A DNA stretch of 64,000 nt from NCBI RefSeq assembly GCF_021372645.1, contig NZ_JAJFUC010000037.1, positions 62,001 through 126,000 on the forward strand, in the 5' to 3' direction. Position 1 is the first letter of the stretch; each line of letters starts with the position of its first letter. The DNA comes from Clostridium sp. (GTDB lineage: Bacteria > Bacillota > Clostridia > Clostridiales > Clostridiaceae). The position numbers were made by a program, and so were the translations under genes. The notes beneath the pieces are model-generated. The model was not told the origin of the DNA and did not search any database. It saw only the letters and a list, made by a program, of their open reading frames with translations. Below are positions 2,209 through 13,447 of the stretch, one piece after another.

Positions 2209-2583
2209 TTATCTCACGCGTTCATTGGCTTTCAAATTCTCTTTTGTTGTTTTGACTATAGATGCAAGTATTTTATTTAGTTCTTTACAGTCATTTATGA
2301 TTGATTCTGATGTTTTCGCATCTAGATAATCAGTTGACTTGAGAAGTTCTAGCCAATAGTCAGTTTCTGATGCTTCCTTTAAGGCTATATTCATCTTCAT
2401 CAAGAAATCTCGTTTACTCGATGCTTGTACTGCTTCTTTTGCATTTGCACCTATACTTGTTCCTGATCTAAGAACTTGTTTTGAAAGAATGTATTCATTC
2501 TTTTCTTTACATAAGTGTTTGTATAAATTAACTATACGTATAGCAAACTTAAAAGCTTTTTCATAGACTAAACTTTCCTTCAA
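2209..2583 (-). CDS. Four-helix-bundle protein (S23/23S rRNA IVS family)
   Basis: This is a 124-residue all-alpha protein with the family hallmarks: YEKAFKFAIRIVNLYKH near the start, then SKQVLRSGTSIGANAKEAVQASS (residues about 35-57) and the KEASETDYWLELL stretch (about 69-81). Relatives form small helical bundles and are encoded in 23S rRNA intervening sequences. They are also related to the accessory protein Avd of diversity-generating retroelements, but no reverse transcriptase is present here. The biochemical role is unknown. Translation starts at TTG (2583), eight bases after AGGAGG. The gene lies between fliT and flagellin in the transcribed direction of the flagellar cluster, bounded by inverted repeats. 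It is not a known flagellar component and is best read as cargo of an inserted element. Confidence 0.85.
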   Translation of the reverse strand: MKESLVYEKAFKFAIRIVNLYKHLCKEKNEYILSKQVLRSGTSIGANAKEAVQASSKRDFLMKMNIALKEASETDYWLELLKSTDYLDAKTSESIINDCKELNKILASIVKTTKENLKANERVR

Positions 2584-3433: not shown

Positions 3434-5674
3434 TTATGCTTGTCCCAGCATACTAGCTAATGATGATTGTTGTGAATTTAATTTTCCCATAATTGTTTCT
3501 AAATCTGAATATTTTTTGTATAATGCAGTTTCTTTAGTTGATAATTGGGTATTTAACTTCTTTATTAGAGCTGTTTTCTCACTAATGCTTTTAGTTAAAG
3601 TATTATCATATTCTGTACTGCTTCCTACTAATCCAGCTTTTTTAGCTAATGATGACGTACTTGTTTTAAATTCACTCTTCAATGCTGCTGCAAGCTGAGT
3701 AAGTACTCCACCTTTATCTGTAGTTGATGCATCTCTTGTAAATAAATCTTTTACATTTGTTGCATTTTCCTCTAGAGCTTTTGTTAGTTTATCTTCATTT
3801 ATAGTAAACATTCCATTTTTATCAGTATAGTCTTTTACTGGAGTTATTCCCATTTGCTCCAAATACGAACCTGAACCTGACATTACAGATGACATAGCAC
3901 TTTTCATTGCATTTGCTATTCTTTCAAGATCACTATCTCTTCTAAGTAATCCCGTTTGTGACTTTTTCTCCCAAGATGTAATTTGATCTTCACTCATTGC
4001 TTTCTTTTGTTCATCTGTTAAAGGCATATAATCTTTATCTCTTTTTTCAAAAAGCTTTGTATTTATACTTTTCAGCAACGTATTATAATCATTAACAAAA
4101 TTTACAATCTTATCTTTTAATGCAGTAACATCTGTTGATCCTGTTAACGTTACTGAATTATCTGTTCCATTTGTTGTTAAGGTTCCATCCTTATTAATTT
4201 TTATTATTGATCCATCATCATTTGTTAATTCTATTGGATCAGTAATTTCTGTTGTTCCATCGGATTCCATTATTTTTATTGTTCCATCACTTGCTATTTT
4301 TATTTTATTGCTATCCGTATTGTCAAGTGTATATACTGTATCACTTACACTAAGATTATTCTCTTCTAAAAGTTTATTTATTGATGATGATGTTATTTGT
4401 GTACTATTTGTTACAGTTCCATCACCTTTAATTGTCATTTTTGTTCCATCAGTATTTGTAAATTCTACTGTATCTGTAGAATCAAGTGCGTTTTCCCCAT
4501 CCATTATTGTTACTTTACTATTAGCAGGAGTATTATTATCAATACATATTTTTATTTTCACTCCATTATTAAGAGTATATTCTGCTGTATCAGTATTATT
4601 AGCAGTATCATGATTATTTAATGTTTTAGTAATATTATCTCCAAAAAGACTCGTTATTGATGTTGATGTTGATCCTGTTGTTATTTGCGTACTACTTGTT
4701 ATACTTCCATCAGTATTAAAAGTTTTTCCATTGCTCACAAATGATGCATCTATTGTTGTTGTCCCATCATTTCCTATTGTTATTTTACGTCCATTACTAA
4801 GCGTATATGATGTATTACTAATATGCTCTTCTAAAAGATTTGTTATAGATGATGATGTTATATTCGATGTCTTACTTGTTACTCCTTTTAAAGTAAACTG
4901 CACATTATCAATATTAACAGTATTAGATGTTCCACTTAATGTATAAGATGTCCCGCCTTTAGTTATTGTTCCTTGAAGCTCTTTATCTACTGCACTACTA
5001 CCATCAAGCGTAAATCCACCTTCCCCCATTTGATCTGCTGTAAAAACTATACCTTTATTAAATTCACTATAAGTAGCAGTTACATTTAAACTTTTTAATT
5101 TTTGTTGAATTATCAGTTTATCTGCTGCATTTGCTGTAGTGTATGCATTATTCAATTCTGCTTTTTTTGCAGTTAGTTTTGTATTATAATTAGCAATTGT
5201 TGTAGCAGCATTTTCTGCTGCTGTTTTGCCTGCATCACTTCCAACCGCAAACGCATCTAATGTTACTAAATTTGCTCCCGAACCAAATGTCATTGTTTTA
5301 TTTCCAGTTGCACCGTCAGCTAAAATACTTGTTGCTTTCGATGCTAATTGAGTTACATTTACTGTGTAATTGTCAATACTCGCTCCTGCAAATCCTTTTG
5401 CAATTACTTTTGAACTATCACTAGATGTAAAACTTTCTGTTTGATAACTACTTGTCATCATTAAATTTCCAGTTTTTAAAATATCAAAATATTTGTCATA
5501 AAAATCTGATGCATCGCTCATTATTTTTTTATATTGTTCCTGTTGATATTCTAAAACTTTTTTGTTTTGAGTTTCTTTATCAACTTTTGTGGTATAAGTT
5601 GTCATTGCTGACTTAACAAGAGCATCCACATCCAATCCAGAATTAGTTCCTGTTATTCTTTGTATTGTTGACAT
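3434..5674 (-). CDS. fliD: Flagellar filament cap FliD with expanded repeat domain
   Basis: This is the filament-capping protein at the tip, which promotes flagellin folding. The N-terminal FliD domain (residues about 1-115) begins MSTIQRITGTNSGLDVDALV. The C-terminal FliD domain (about 515-746) ends in a coiled coil with GKLNSQQSSLASMLGQA. At 746 residues it is longer than typical FliD (450-600). The excess lies at residues 273-510, where three imperfect units each carry an SSSI-LLEE type helix followed by beta-strand-like TLxNGxKIxI and DGTxT motifs. One cysteine occurs in the insert. The start is supported by AAGGAGTGAG. It sits between fliS and fliT, the usual chaperone-capping block. Confidence 0.96.
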   Translation of the reverse strand: MSTIQRITGTNSGLDVDALVKSAMTTYTTKVDKETQNKKVLEYQQEQYKKIMSDASDFYDKYFDILKTGNLMMTSSYQTESFTSSDSSKVIAKGFAGASIDNYTVNVTQLASKATSILADGATGNKTMTFGSGANLVTLDAFAVGSDAGKTAAENAATTIANYNTKLTAKKAELNNAYTTANAADKLIIQQKLKSLNVTATYSEFNKGIVFTADQMGEGGFTLDGSSAVDKELQGTITKGGTSYTLSGTSNTVNIDNVQFTLKGVTSKTSNITSSSITNLLEEHISNTSYTLSNGRKITIGNDGTTTIDASFVSNGKTFNTDGSITSSTQITTGSTSTSITSLFGDNITKTLNNHDTANNTDTAEYTLNNGVKIKICIDNNTPANSKVTIMDGENALDSTDTVEFTNTDGTKMTIKGDGTVTNSTQITSSSINKLLEENNLSVSDTVYTLDNTDSNKIKIASDGTIKIMESDGTTEITDPIELTNDDGSIIKINKDGTLTTNGTDNSVTLTGSTDVTALKDKIVNFVNDYNTLLKSINTKLFEKRDKDYMPLTDEQKKAMSEDQITSWEKKSQTGLLRRDSDLERIANAMKSAMSSVMSGSGSYLEQMGITPVKDYTDKNGMFTINEDKLTKALEENATNVKDLFTRDASTTDKGGVLTQLAAALKSEFKTSTSSLAKKAGLVGSSTEYDNTLTKSISEKTALIKKLNTQLSTKETALYKKYSDLETIMGKLNSQQSSLASMLGQA
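4145..4858 (-). repeat. Three tandem coding repeats inside fliD
   Basis: The repeats encode residues 273-510 of FliD. Unit 1 (about 273-332) starts SSSITNLLEEH, unit 2 (about 335-428) starts STSITSLFGDN, and unit 3 (about 429-510) starts SSSINKLLEENN. Each runs on through YTLxNxxKIxI to a TxxDGTxT turn. Repeats were recognised by eye at protein level and are diverged. Confidence 0.75.
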
Positions 5675-7652: not shown

Positions 7653-10600
7653 CTATAAATAACTTAATATGGTCATTGGTAATATTTTGGCACTAGTCTG
7701 AAGTGCAGCTGTATATACTGTCTGCATCATAGAATAATTCATTGTAGTTTCTGCAAAGTCTATATCTTCTGTCTTTGATAATATATCCGTCATATTATAA
7801 TTTTGAGTTTCATTGTTTGCTTGTGCTGAATCCATTCTATTTTGCATCGTTCCAACTTCTGATCTTTTTTGCAGCAGATTGGATGTTACAGATTGTATAT
7901 CAGACAAATCAGTAGTGATAATGTCTGCATTAGTTCCTGTTGATCCTAAATCATTTATTATCTTTGATATAAGATCAGAAACATTTATACTCTTTCCTGT
8001 CTTATCTTTAAATTCTAATATATCAGCTGCGTTTTTGTTATAAGCAGTTTTAATTCCTTGGGCAATATCTACGTTCAGATCTGAATCAATTTGTACTAAT
8101 TGCGCCACTTCTTCACTATTTAATATTTTATTAATTTCAGTTTTTCTTTTCTGCGTGGTAGTTGATGCTTGTAATTCATTTTTAAGATCTTTTATTGCTA
8201 TTGCTGACATAGTTAGCTTTTCATTTTCATGAGTTGATGAAATTGTAAGATTTCCTGCTGCATCTGAATAAATCTTGTCATTTGCTGTTAACTCTGTATT
8301 TGGTGTCGTTGATGATGTTGTTACATTACCTTTACTATCAGAATATATAGACTGACCAGAATTTAATACTGTGTTTCCTGTACTATTTGTTGTAATGTTT
8401 CCTGTACTATCTACATATAAAACAGCATCTGAAGTTAATAATGTATTTTTTGTTCCACTTGATGTTGCAGCAGACTTTGTAACATTACCATTACTATCCA
8501 CATATAATGAGTCACTTGATTTTATCAACGTATTTGATGTTGTTGGTGATGCTGTAATATTGTCATCCCCATCCAAATACAAAGTATCTCCTAATACCAT
8601 TTTCGTATTTTCTGTTCCATCTGATGCTGTCGCTGATGTTGTAAGACAATTTGCTGTTTTGTCTAAATATAAAGTAGTACCTGACGTTACTTGTGGTGAT
8701 CCTGCTAAAATCGTTCCGTCTTCTGATGCTATAATATTTCCATTTCCATCTGTGTATAAAGAATTATTTAATATTATCACCTTATTAGCTGTTCCATCTG
8801 ATGCTGTTTCAGATGTTGTAATAGTGCCATTATCATAGTATAAAGATGCATTATTATCTAACTTTTCATTTACTGTAGCTGATGATGTTGTTACATTTCC
8901 TGTAATATCAACATATAAAGCATCACCTGATTTTATTAATACATTGTCGTTTCCATCTTTATCTACCGATGAATTAGTTACATTTCCATTGCCATCTCTA
9001 TATAAAGTATCTATTGAAGTTATTAATGTATTCACATTTCCATCCTTATCTACTGGCAAATTTGTTACATTTTGATTAACATCTATATATAAATTATTTT
9101 GTGAAGTTACCAATGTATTTTGGGTAGTTTCTGATGTTGTTACATTTCCATTTTTATCAACAAATAAAGGATCTTTTAATAAAACAGATTTATTTGCATC
9201 ATAATATAAAGATGACTCAGTATCTAACTTGTGCTTTATAGTAAATGATGCTGTTGTTACATTTCCATCACCATCAGCATCTGCATATAAGGATTCCCCT
9301 GATTTTATAACTTCATTGGCATTTCCATCTTTATCTACAGAAGAATTTGTTACATTTCCATTACCATCTACATATAAAATATCTAATGAATTTATCAATG
9401 TATTATTATTTCCACTTTTATCAATCATTGAAGTTGTTACATTTCCATTAGCATCAGTATATAAATGATTTTCTGAAGTTATCAATGTGTTTTCTGTAGT
9501 TATTGATGTTGTTACATTGCCTTTGTCATCATAATATAAATATGCATTAGTACTTAACTCATTATTTTCTGTAGTCGATAATGTTGTTACGTTTCCTTCA
9601 GAGTTCACATATAAAGAATCTCCTGTTGTTATCGATGTATTTCCATTTCCATTCCTATCCAATGGAGAAATTGTTACATTCCCATTAGTATCTTTATATA
9701 AAGTATCTTCTGAAGTTATTAATGTATTGTTATTTCCGTCTTTATCCACTATTGAATTTGTTACATTTCCATTAGCATCCACGTATAAAATACTATCTGA
9801 AGGTATTGATTTATTTGCTGTAGTTTGCGATTTTATGATATTACCGCTGTTATCATAATATAAAGTCGCATTAGCATCTAAATCATTATTTACTGTAAAT
9901 GATGAAGTTGTTATATTTCCTTCTGAATCTATATACAAAGATTCATCAGATCCTATTAACGTATTACTATTTCCACTAGCATCTGTAGATGAAATTGTTA
10001 CATTTCCACTAGTATCCTTATATAAGGTATCATCTGAAGTTATTACTTCATTATAGTTTCCATTTTCATCTACAACTGAATTTGTTACATTTCCGTTAGA
10101 ATCTTTGTATATGTTATCTTCTGAAGTTACTAATTTATTTTCTGTAATTTTTGAGTTTTTAATATTACCATTGTTATCATAGTATAAAGATACATCCTTA
10201 TATATCCCTTCATTTATTCTAGCCGGTAAGCTAGAAACATTTCCTTTAGCATCTTGATATAATGATTGCCCTGATGCTATCAATGTATTTCCTGAGCTAT
10301 TTGTTGTTACATTCCCTTTAGCGTCTGTATATAAAGTATCAGTTGATGTTATAAGGGTATTAGCTGTATTTTTTAACGTTGTTATATTTTTATTTTGGTC
10401 AACGTATAATGTATCTTCTGACGTAATTAATGTATTTCCCGTACTAGTTGTTGTTATACTTCCTTTAGAATCTACATATAATGATTCTCCTGAATTTACT
10501 ACTGTGTTTTTGTTTCCATCTTTATCAATTGGTGAATTTGTTACATTTCCACTAGTATCTTTATATAAAATATCTTTTGATGTTATCAGCGTATTATCTG

Positions 10601-11465
10601 TGGTTTTTGATGTTGTAACATTTTTATTTTGATCAACATATAAAGTATCTGCTGAAGTTATTAATGTATTTTCTGTATTTTTTGACGTTGTTATATTCCC
10701 ATTAATATCTGTATATAAAGTATCCTCTAATAAAATAGATTTGTTTGCTGTTCCACCTGATGCACTCGATGCTGTTGTAATTTTTCTATCTGAATCTAGA
10801 TATAAAGAACTTCTTTGTACTATTGATGTATTTGCTGTTCCATCTAATGCGCTGGATGCCGTTGTAATTTTTCCATTTGAATCTAAATATAATTTATCAG
10901 TTGAAGTTAATAATGTATTATCAGAAGTCGAAGAATTAGTAACTTCACCAGCTGCATTAAGATACGTAATTATTGCCTTTCCTTCTTTATTAGCATATTG
11001 CAATTTACCATTAGAATCTACAGTAGTAGGTTTGGATCCTGTCTTAGTTCCCCCGAAGATATAAGACCCATCAAAACTAGTGTTTAAAATTTGGGATAAT
11101 TCATTAACCTTTTCTTTTATTTCATCTTGAATTGCAGCTTTTTCATCATCTCCATAAGTTCCATTTCCTGCATTTACAAGTAATGTCTCTATTCTTCCAA
11201 AAATATTACCCATTTGAGATAATGCTGTATCTGTAGTATCTAGCCAATTTGAGGTATCTTTTATATTTTCATTATATTGTTTATTATAAGAAATTTCAGC
11301 ATTCAATTGCATGCTTCTTGATGCTATATAAGGATTATCAGAGGCGTTTTGTATAGTCTTTCCTGACGCTAATTGATTTTGTAATGATTTCATATTATTC
11401 ATATTTTTTTGCATGTTTCTTAAGTAATTTGAACTTAACATGCTGCTTGTTATTCTTGAAGACAT
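7653..11465 (-). CDS. flgL: Hook-filament junction protein FlgL with giant tandem-repeat insertion
   Basis: FlgL (HAP3) joins hook to filament. The N-terminal flagellin-like region (residues 1-165) begins [21 protein letters not shown] and includes [14 protein letters not shown] and the [10 protein letters not shown] segment. The C-terminal region (1086-1270) ends with the normal [12 protein letters not shown]. Together these total about 350 residues, an ordinary FlgL. Between them lie about 920 residues of short repeats built on LYxDxxGNVTxS (about 34 units), giving 1270 residues in all. One cysteine is present in the repeats. The start is supported by ATAGGAGGTAAATTT. There is no frameshift or stop, so the insertion appears to be maintained in frame. 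It should project from the junction as a surface domain. Confidence 0.95.
8211..10973 (-). repeat. FlgL coding-repeat array, about 34 units with 108-residue super-period
   Basis: The array encodes residues about 165-1085 of FlgL. The basic unit is 22-29 residues: a Leu/Ile-Tyr-x-Asp core, a GNVT or GNIT turn, then a Ser/Thr stretch ending NTLITSxD. Units starting at residues 451, 559, 667 and 791 define four larger blocks. The first two are exactly 108 residues, made of 29+29+25+25. The third has a truncated fourth unit (about residue 752) followed by an extra unit at 766. Units outside these blocks are more irregular. Confidence 0.9.
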
Positions 11466-11476
11466 AAATTTACCTC

Positions 11477-13447
11477 CTATCTCTTTAATCCATTTATTAC
11501 TACATCTAATAATTCATCTATTGTTGATATCATTTTTGCATTTGCCTGATATGCGTGCTGATATTGAATTAAATTTGTCATTTCTTCATCTAATGATACT
11601 CCTGAAACCGAATTTTTTTGATCTTCTAAATTAGATAGTATTGCCTCTTGATTATCAACTTGTCTACTGGCCTCTTGGTTAGTTGTTGCAAGATTATTTA
11701 TTATAGATTTATAATAAGAATCAACTGTTGACCCATCTGTTCCAGCTTTCAACTCCAAACATGTAGTAGAATCTGAAAATCCTGTTATTCCTGCTTCGCT
11801 TAGGAAAGTTGCTCTATCCATTGTAGTTAAATCTTCTGTAGATTCTACTTTGCTTAAATTCATTTTTATTGAATTAAGATTAGCTATTGCATTAGCCCTT
11901 TTACCATCTCCCTCACCACTTGTTGATTTTGTATTACAATTTAATAAATTGGGAGTTGTTAGTAAATTATCATTTATTCTTATAGTTTTAGCAGTTATTC
12001 CTTTATCTGTTGTTAAATTTGTTTTTGTAGTATCATCATATGTAACAAATATAAGATCACTACTTGATAAATTAGTATTTGCTGTACCTGTACTTCCTAC
12101 TTGAATTGCGTTAACACTATAAGCCAGTCCTGCTGCAAGCCTGTCTAACTTATCCATGTATCCTTTTGTGATTTCCTGTACTTTTTGATTAGCAGCTATT
12201 GCTCCTCTTATATGGTTGTTATCTACATCATTTTCTCCACTCTTTATTGTGCTTTGACTCTCATCTTGATAAGTTTGGAATGTTCCACCTACTAATTCTT
12301 CAGCAGTTGTTGGTGGCACTGATTTTACTAATGTTGTATATGTTTTTGAACTATCTGCATTTGTTACAACCGTTACTGTTGTTGTAGTTGTTACTGCTGT
12401 TGCTCCACTTCCTGTCGTTACTGTATTTGTTCCCAAAGATGGTGCCGGAGTTTGATCTGTAACTGAAGTTTTGGTCATTCCCATAGCATTACCATCTTTA
12501 TCAGCAATTAAAACTCTATTTTGCAGCAAACTTTCAGCTAAACTTTTAGCCTCATTAGCATCTGCTGCTGTTATCGTAAATGTTTTTGGTGTAGAATTTT
12601 CATTTCCTAATAGGTAATATTCCACCTCAACAGTACCATCCGCTTTACCAACAGCACTTTTAACATATGAAAGCCTTGAATAATCTGTATCATTTGGATC
12701 TGATTTAACTAAAGCTGCATCTGGATACTCTGTTGATGAAAGATTTATAGTATCAAGGCTGTCTCTATCAACTTTTATTCCAAATTCATTACTTAATTTA
12801 TCTAAAAGATTATCTCTTTTATCCATTAAATCATTTGCTGTTTGTCCAACTGCCGAAACACTTCTTATTTGCTTATTTAATTCATTTATTTGATCTAAAT
12901 AACTATTAACATCTGTAACATTAGTTTGAAGAAGTGACTGGCTATCCTCACAAGTCTTTTCAAGTTGATTATAAGTATAGTTTATTGCATCTGCAAGTGC
13001 TGATGCATCCTTAATAGCTACTGTTTTCACATCTGTTTTATCTGGACTTTTTGACACCTCTTGGAATGCATTAAAGAATTGATTTGTAAGCTCTTGTATT
13101 CCTGTATCTGATGGTTCTCCAAAAATATCTTCAACTTTTGATAAAGTTTCACTTGTTTGTGTATAATACCCTGATGTTCCCGTTTCATTTCTTACTTGAT
13201 AATCTATAAAATAATCTCTAATTCTTTGTATAGATGTTATTTCTGCTCCTGTTCCAACTTGTCCAACTGAGCAAGTATCAAATCTTGACATTCCTCCAAA
13301 AGGCTTTGTTGCTTCCGCTACTGCCCTTTGCCTTGAATAACCCTCTGTGTTTGCATTAGCTATATTGTGTGATGTTGTATTTATAGCACCTTGTTGTACA
13401 TTTAATCCCCTTTTCGCAATGGTAAATGTATCAAATAGTCCTGACAT
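11477..13447 (-). CDS. flgK: Hook-filament junction protein FlgK
   Basis: FlgK (HAP1) links hook to FlgL. The N-terminal rod/hook motif begins MSGLFDTFTIAKRGLNVQQ, with TTSHNIANANTEGYSRQ at about residues 24-40. The C-terminus has VSGVSLDEEMTNLIQYQHAY and ends in IDELLDVVINGLKR, both classic. At 656 residues it is somewhat longer than usual. A Thr/Val-rich low-complexity stretch (about residues 345-385) probably accounts for this. The ATG follows GGTAGGAAAAACAT. A perfect CACCCC-T-GGGGTG palindrome lies in the flgN-flgK gap at 13482-13494; its role is unknown. Confidence 0.96.
   Translation of the reverse strand: MSGLFDTFTIAKRGLNVQQGAINTTSHNIANANTEGYSRQRAVAEATKPFGGMSRFDTCSVGQVGTGAEITSIQRIRDYFIDYQVRNETGTSGYYTQTSETLSKVEDIFGEPSDTGIQELTNQFFNAFQEVSKSPDKTDVKTVAIKDASALADAINYTYNQLEKTCEDSQSLLQTNVTDVNSYLDQINELNKQIRSVSAVGQTANDLMDKRDNLLDKLSNEFGIKVDRDSLDTINLSSTEYPDAALVKSDPNDTDYSRLSYVKSAVGKADGTVEVEYYLLGNENSTPKTFTITAADANEAKSLAESLLQNRVLIADKDGNAMGMTKTSVTDQTPAPSLGTNTVTTGSGATAVTTTTTVTVVTNADSSKTYTTLVKSVPPTTAEELVGGTFQTYQDESQSTIKSGENDVDNNHIRGAIAANQKVQEITKGYMDKLDRLAAGLAYSVNAIQVGSTGTANTNLSSSDLIFVTYDDTTKTNLTTDKGITAKTIRINDNLLTTPNLLNCNTKSTSGEGDGKRANAIANLNSIKMNLSKVESTEDLTTMDRATFLSEAGITGFSDSTTCLELKAGTDGSTVDSYYKSIINNLATTNQEASRQVDNQEAILSNLEDQKNSVSGVSLDEEMTNLIQYQHAYQANAKMISTIDELLDVVINGLKR

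What the first reader, a model, noticed from the sequence alone, without database searches (positions are those of the whole stretch)
8211..10973. FlgL carries about 920 residues of tandem repeats with a higher-order period
A normal FlgL is split by about 34 repeats of 22-29 residues built on LYxDxxGNVTxS. Four blocks of about 108 residues (29+29+25+25) start at residues 451, 559, 667 and 791, showing segmental duplication on top of unit duplication. One block has a truncated unit followed by an extra one. The flanking conserved ends are intact, so a long repeat domain probably projects from the hook-filament junction. It may be adhesive, protective or immune-evasive. I do not recognise the repeat as a known family.
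Basis: partly seen in the sequence, partly recalled or inferred. Interest (0 to 1): 0.75.

Follow-up and report, generated by a model that had tools for sequence, protein, structure and literature searches.

The report
Giant FlgL with amplified surface repeats
A protein at the joint between a bacterium's flagellar hook and its propeller has grown to about three times its usual size by copying one small outer piece some 35 times, and relatives appear to exchange this outer piece for others while keeping the core of the protein.

Summary
flgL (window 7653-11465, minus strand, 1270 aa) has intact FlgL ends and about 35 tandem units, mostly 25 or 29 aa, between residues 168 and 1115. It is not an assembly artefact: the longest exact DNA repeat in the array is 22 bp, and two other genomes of the genus carry similar arrays.

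The array does not look like a foreign insert. Its last unit is homologous to a unit present twice in the outer (D2) region of some normal-length FlgLs of the genus. On a tree of FlgL cores, unlike D2 'cassettes' sit on close cores, as in the hypervariable region of flagellin. Several motif residues change mainly synonymously while other positions are free, so the units are probably folded.

The four-unit profile matches 3 of 206 family genomes. Four unrelated 660-870 aa FlgLs elsewhere in the phylum also hold internal D2 duplications. Function is inferred: a variable surface coat or arm on the junction ring. The fold could not be predicted because the tool was off. New variant of a known kind.

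The parts
7653..11465 (-). flgL, hook-filament junction protein FlgL (HAP3), 1270 aa
   Evidence: ORF; Flagellin_N/C; TIGR02550 over cut-off
11016..11465 (-). conserved N-terminal D0/D1 part, residues 1-150
   Evidence: residues 4-149 match residues 2-148 of a solved FlgL, 9go6_L; DNA homology with C. chromiireducens ends near residue 166
8121..10964 (-). D2 repeat cassette, residues 168-1115, about 35 units
8274..10892 (-). hairpin-like units, residues 192-1064, consensus LYxDxxGNVTTSxTTxNTLITSxDT (25 aa) or with an extra DKDG-type loop (29 aa)
9789..10112 (-). super-block 1, residues 452-559 (29+29+25+25)
9465..9788 (-). super-block 2, residues 560-667 (29+29+25+25)
9093..9464 (-). super-block 3, residues 668-791, with a truncated 14-aa unit at 753 and an extra unit at 767
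8760..9092 (-). super-block 4, residues 792-902 (29+29+25+28)
8121..8273 (-). last unit, residues 1065-1115: hairpin-like part plus a tail that reads as two helices, homologous to D2 units of some normal-length FlgLs
   Evidence: hmmsearch full-sequence E 7.4e-16 to L011; family search
7653..8078 (-). conserved C-terminal D1/D0 part, residues 1130-1270, and stop

Best explanation
This is FlgL whose exchangeable D2 region has grown by tandem amplification of a native unit of about 25 residues. Shown: the ends are those of FlgL; the last unit is related to D2 units of shorter FlgLs of the genus; unlike D2 cassettes sit on close cores; several motif residues are kept by selection. Inferred: the protein is exported unfolded through the flagellar export channel, joins the ring of 11 FlgL subunits between hook and filament, and shows the array on the outside of the ring. 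There it acts as a variable surface coat or arm, maintained and exchanged like the hypervariable region of flagellin, most likely because phages, predators or antibodies select for changed surfaces. Unit number would change by unequal recombination between units.
For: FlgL identity. Unit homology to normal-length D2. Cassette swap: G037 and G032 FlgL cores are 95.2% (N) and 87.2% (C) identical, their D2s have no match at E<=1e-3, and DNA homology stops near residue 150 and resumes near residue 640, with 81-92% identical DNA on both sides. On a core tree of 30 FlgLs the array, the short unit-type D2 and the B-type D2 interleave; starred branches force at least 3 changes for the array label. Unit 0 and the last unit are reciprocal best matches between the window and both other arrays; middle units of the window protein are more alike among themselves (45.3) than to G003 (24.9) or G037 (31.7). 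Several motif codons vary mostly synonymously. Literature passages: D2 lies outside, and B. cereus FlgL has only D1 (PMC6155364); 11 FlgL per junction and a bulky D2 in C. jejuni (PMC12221982); flagellin variable regions could move between species by recombination with ends in the conserved parts (PMC7018530).
Against: No structure could be predicted, so a folded array is inferred. Median dN/dS between units is 0.68, so constraint is weak overall. The four-unit profile A1 did not match normal-length FlgLs at E<=1e-5, so the native origin rests on the last unit and its likeness to the others. With three array FlgLs, exchange cannot be told from an old array lost several times; on the tree the labels are no more clustered than shuffled ones. 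Within G003 and G037 the middle units are no more alike (20.8, 27.8) than to those of the window, so recent growth is seen only in the window protein. No data on expression, localisation or selecting agent.
Confidence: 0.55

Rival explanations
1. The array is an adhesive or spacing arm: a long repeat stalk at the junction that binds plant polymers, mucus or other cells, with many weak binding units giving avidity.
For: Many S/T/N-rich, acidic units (S+T 28%, N 13%, D+E 115 against K+R 53 in residues 165-1085); surface position inferred from FlgL structures (PMC6155364 passages).
Against: No convincing match to a known binding family (Pfam, NCBIfam, PDB); no distinct non-repeat domain in the middle of the array; position near the cell, not at the filament tip.
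Confidence: 0.2
2. Near-neutral expansion: D2 is dispensable and exposed, so duplications are tolerated and drift, kept only from misfolding.
For: Median dN/dS 0.68 between units; many unit positions with a ratio over 1; D2 slices of only 35-58 aa in the FlgLs of 324-345 aa.
Against: Several motif residues strongly kept; array end units conserved across species; the extra length costs about 840-855 residues per subunit compared with relatives of 414-431 aa.
Confidence: 0.3
3. Mechanical belt: neighbouring D2 arrays pack together and strengthen the junction ring.
For: PMC6155364 proposes that D2 reinforces the junction (passages); a FlgL interface mutant loses filaments under shear (PMC12221982 passages).
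Against: Close relatives manage with D2 of about 125 aa (G032 122, C. chromiireducens 127); array D2 length differs about twofold (983, 731 and 495 aa).
Confidence: 0.12
4. Assembly or frameshift artefact.
For: Draft genome of 105 contigs.
Against: Longest exact repeat 22 bp, best unit pair 83%; one open frame; similar arrays in C. beijerinckii HUN142 and G037.
Confidence: 0.02

Closest known systems
FlgL (HAP3) with a D2 domain, e.g. Xanthomonas campestris FlgL
   Same: Core ends, and an extra domain at the outward D2 position (PMC6155364, passages)
   Different: X. campestris D2 is one beta-sandwich; here about 35 short tandem units and about three times the protein length of relatives
Giant flagellins with tandem DE regions (Bermanella, Oleibacter)
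   Same: A flagellar axial protein over 1000 aa whose outer region grew by internal tandem duplication (PMC6248924, section 14)
   Different: Flagellin, not junction protein; two large copies, not about 35 small ones; vertical inheritance reported there, while here cassettes interleave on the core tree
Flagellin hypervariable region exchange
   Same: Conserved ends and unlike middle parts, exchanged by recombination (PMC7018530, passages)
   Different: That study filtered FlgL sequences out; here a like pattern in FlgL
Other Bacillota FlgLs of 660-870 aa (L085-L088)
   Same: D2 with 2-3 internal copies
   Different: Larger copies (offsets of 127-308 aa); the profile of this unit found nothing in the phylum sample outside the own genome

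Membership tests
FlgL (TIGR02550) | Profile score over the curated cut-off | tested here: met
   223.7 bits against 127.2
FlgL (TIGR02550) | Both flagellin-type ends, N and C | tested here: met
   PF00669 residues 6-142, PF00700 residues 1190-1270
FlgL (TIGR02550) | Gene follows flgK in a flagellar gene cluster | tested here: met
   FlgK (TIGR02492) at 11477-13447, directly upstream on the same strand; FliD at 3434-5674
FlgL (TIGR02550) | Located at the hook-filament junction | not testable with these tools
   needs microscopy
Clostridium FlgL D2 unit (hairpin-like part plus helical tail), defined here | Last array unit homologous to D2 units of normal-length FlgLs | tested here: met
   hmmsearch full-sequence E 7.4e-16 (L011), 8.4e-13 (L014), 1.7e-10 (L012); best single unit 8.7e-10, 1.5e-8, 7.3e-8; for a set of 30 D2 regions with 3 duplicates; best region outside the unit type 0.021
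Clostridium FlgL D2 unit, defined here | Array units other than the last match normal-length FlgLs on their own | tested here: not met
   profile A1 of four units: no match at E<=1e-5 in the genomes of L011, L012 and L014
Phage_cement_2 (PF09956) | Whole-domain match, shared by relatives | tested here: not met
   E 1.8e-5, 25.5 bits just over the cut-off of 24, three stretches, but the best covers 36 of 103 profile positions; not listed for G003 at E<=1, and 18.3 bits, under cut-off, for G037
YD/RHS repeats or choline-binding repeats (resemblance recalled) | Pfam or NCBIfam repeat model match | tested here: not met
   not listed at E<=10 in Pfam or E<=1 in NCBIfam; the scan's filters drop most weak matches
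Giant flagellin | Is a flagellin | tested here: not met
   only the FlgL model is over its cut-off; flagellin models are under theirs
Beta-solenoid repeat protein | Solenoid fold with stacked residue ladders | not testable with these tools

The most novel reading that the evidence does not exclude
Eleven FlgL subunits display eleven repeat arms, forming a collar around the hook-filament junction whose reach is set by unit number. Different Clostridium species swap this collar for other D2 types as an evolving surface organ of the flagellum, distinct from the filament, for evading phages or predators or for attachment.
Probability: 0.2. Interest if true: 0.7.

Novelty: new variant of a known kind. 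Interest (0 to 1): 0.45.

Why it matters
To my knowledge (recalled), surface variation of flagella is studied mainly in flagellin. Here the low-copy junction protein shows like signs (unlike outer cassettes on close cores, and tandem growth), which makes it testable whether FlgL is itself a target of phages, predators or antibodies, and how much extra mass the junction ring and the export channel tolerate.

Tried and rejected
Assembly artefact: rejected. Foreign insertion: thought less likely than amplified native D2. Mobile source of the repeat: tblastn of residues 452-667 found no match in 50,697 phage and 72,556 plasmid records (the low-complexity filter was on and may have hidden matches). 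The four-unit profile A1 matched 3 of 206 family genomes at E<=1e-5 and only the own genome among 398 of the phylum at E<=0.001. PDB by sequence: 2 matches, best E 0.47, taken as chance. PHROGs: best E 0.0016 (G003, 'virion structural protein'), 0.0064 (G037), 0.057 (window), a different family each time. Pfam FliC (PF12445) on G003: E 0.0078, 17 bits, under its cut-off of 23.2. Phage_cement_2: see membership test.

The long frame of G388 was false: its FlgL ORF is 289 aa. G262 (611 aa frame) and G296 (571 aa) of the same list were not fetched. My note of fused double flagellins was wrong for G016, which has two separate ORFs of 404 and 387 aa; G006, G017 and G028 were not checked. An 8-unit alignment (A2) was discarded because overlapping segments put MAFFT out of register. 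Single-linkage grouping of D2 regions was uninformative: 20 of 30 fell into one group, since my D2 slices share a conserved edge.

Paper searches for a long or repeat-bearing FlgL. The rows listed (the best few of up to 125 papers) showed no paper on a FlgL of this kind, and 'giant FlgL' had no hit; only open-licence papers are held. I read passages or one section of four papers, none as a whole.

Full report
What is there. The gene at window 7653-11465 (minus strand) encodes 1270 aa with flagellin-type ends (Flagellin_N 6-142, Flagellin_C 1190-1270) and scores as FlgL (223.7 bits, cut-off 127.2). It follows flgK (TIGR02492), with fliD further along the same strand. The genome is a 3.12 Mb draft of 105 contigs. 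Between residues 168 and 1115 lie about 35 units: 35 motif anchors, less one inside a unit (421), plus an earlier unit at 168. Of the 34 anchor spacings, 13 are 29 aa, 12 are 25 and 3 are 24. Super-blocks start at 452, 560, 668 and 792; the third has a truncated unit (753) and an extra one (767). Ungapped block identities run from 73% (DNA) and 59% (protein) for 452-560 down to 54% and 34% for 452-668.

Not chance and not an artefact. Array autocorrelation is 0.246 against at most 0.129 in 50 shuffles; the longest exact DNA repeat is 22 bp and the best unit pair is 83% identical.

How unusual. In the genus, 53 of 68 genomes have a TIGR02550 match, 51 over the cut-off. In the rows listed (the table was cut), frames that read as FlgL are 501 aa or less except in G000, G003 and G037. 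Other long frames there look like flagellin matches by their score; I looked at two (G038, a flagellin with an insert; G016, two separate ORFs). In the family, 169 of 200 genomes match at E<=1e-30; among the rows listed (also cut) only these three exceed 600 aa, the next being 575. In a phylum sample, 167 of 199 match at E<=1e-15; the window's frame is the longest listed (1286 from stop to stop), then 871, 862 (false), 715, 662, 660 and 611. Of these I fetched five; the four real ones (L085-L088, 870, 714, 662 and 660 aa) each have internal duplications, at offsets of 127-308 aa, with best scores of 67-82 against 30-37 for one shuffle each. Growth of D2 by internal duplication is therefore recurrent in FlgL, and this is its extreme among those seen.

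Origin of the unit. A profile of the last units of the three arrays finds the D2 regions of L011, L014 and L012 at full-sequence E 7.4e-16, 8.4e-13 and 1.7e-10 (best single unit 8.7e-10, 1.5e-8, 7.3e-8) and, more weakly, L027 (4.3e-7), L024 (3.4e-4) and L019 (0.0028), among 30 D2 regions of which 3 are duplicates; the next region scores 0.021. A profile of nine such units (A4) matches 9 of 206 family genomes at E<=0.001; all 12 listed hits lie inside the FlgL frames. Six of the nine genomes gave rows to the profile; G012, G022 and G029 did not. In L011, L012 and L014 the unit, twice per protein, is a hairpin-like stretch plus a tail that reads as two helices; in the window array that tail is seen only in the last unit. 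The fold words are read from sequence, not predicted. Against: the four-unit profile A1, without the last unit, matched no normal-length FlgL at E<=1e-5, so the origin of the other units rests on their likeness to the last one.

Cassette exchange. G037 and G032 FlgL cores are 95.2% (N) and 87.2% (C) identical, but their DNA is homologous only up to FlgL residue about 150 and again from about 640, with flanks 81-92% identical, and their D2s have no match at E<=1e-3. The window's core is 88.5% and 82.3% identical to that of C. chromiireducens FlgL (414 aa), whose D2 (L010, the same protein) has no match at E<=1e-3 to the window's. The G032 D2 instead matches L010 (7.5e-8) and L018 (6.9e-9). On a core tree of 30 FlgLs the types interleave: L011 (unit type) is sister to L018 (B type), and G037 (array) to L005 (the G032 FlgL, B type); starred branches force at least 3 changes for the array, 3 for the short unit type and 4 for B. 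The B label is mine (L004, L005, L007, L010, L018); L013, which matches L005 at 3.8e-5, was left unlabelled. Set aside: 4 duplicates of other rows, L030 (part of the G037 gene), and four loci whose FlgL my motif search missed (L009, L016, L020, L026); genomes without a fetched locus are not in the tree. Against: labels on the tree are no more clustered than shuffled ones (6 changes, shuffled mean 6.6, 83 of 200 as low), and one old array with several losses is not excluded.

Array history. Unit 0 and the last unit are reciprocal best matches between the window and both other arrays, and the last unit also between G003 and G037; unit 0 is not between G003 and G037. Middle units of the window protein are more alike among themselves (mean score 45.3) than to G003 (24.9) or G037 (31.7), which fits anchored ends with later growth in the middle. 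This does not hold for the other two: within G003 20.8, within G037 27.8.

Constraint. Over same-length unit pairs the median dN/dS is 0.68 (143 of 144 pairs usable). By column, one-base codon differences are almost all synonymous at D4, G7, N8, T15 and N17 of the 25-aa unit (10/1, 27/1, 11/0, 11/0, 11/0 synonymous/non-synonymous) and at Y2 and N21 of the 29-aa unit (30/0, 20/0), with low ratios at Y2 of the 25-aa unit (0.08) and N19 of the 29-aa unit (0.04). Columns 5, 6, 12, 13, 16, 22, 23 and 25 of the 25-aa unit have ratios over 1. Counter-signs: N8 of the 29-aa unit (0/22) and T10 of the 25-aa unit (0/21) differ only non-synonymously, and column 20 varies among I, L and V. Pair counts are not independent. 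I read this as selection for a fold with free surface positions.

Mechanism. From passages read: FlgL of B. cereus has only D1; X. campestris FlgL carries a D2 inserted in D1 and exposed outside (PMC6155364). Eleven FlgL form the distal junction layer, about 15 nm wide, and C. jejuni FlgL has a bulky D2 (PMC12221982). The array thus probably lies outside the ring; this is inferred. If each unit were one solenoid coil (0.48 nm rise, recalled), the array would be about 16 nm long; as separate hairpins it would be longer. Both ends of D2 must return to D1, so a single straight arm would need a way back; a like topology puzzle is raised for giant flagellins (PMC6248924, section 14).

Verdict. A real and extreme FlgL: most likely a native surface unit amplified within an exchangeable D2 cassette. 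Its anatomy is well supported, its evolution fairly well, and its function is not shown.

Noticed in passing
window 3434-5674 (-): FliD (746 aa) has about three imperfect tandem repeats near residues 263-500 (best self-match score 65 against 35 for one shuffle); by eye C. chromiireducens FliD (L063) has similar ones.
   Followed up: partly
L081 (G038), frame of 1163 aa: A flagellin-type protein with a large insert holding an HExxH motif, which recalls the proteolytic flagellins (recalled, not tested).
   Followed up: no
L085-L088: FlgLs of 660-870 aa in other Bacillota whose D2 holds 2-3 internal copies of larger domains.
   Followed up: partly
window 2209-2583 (-): Small ORF beside the flagellin gene that looks like a four-helix S23/intervening-sequence protein (recalled, not tested).
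   Followed up: no
L036:5638-6498 (+): ORF of 286 aa on the opposite strand between flagellin genes that looks like a LAGLIDADG homing endonuclease (recalled, not tested).
   Followed up: no
L036:1969-3822 (-): Repeat protein of BspA-like leucine-rich look beside a small flagellin gene (recalled, not tested).
   Followed up: no
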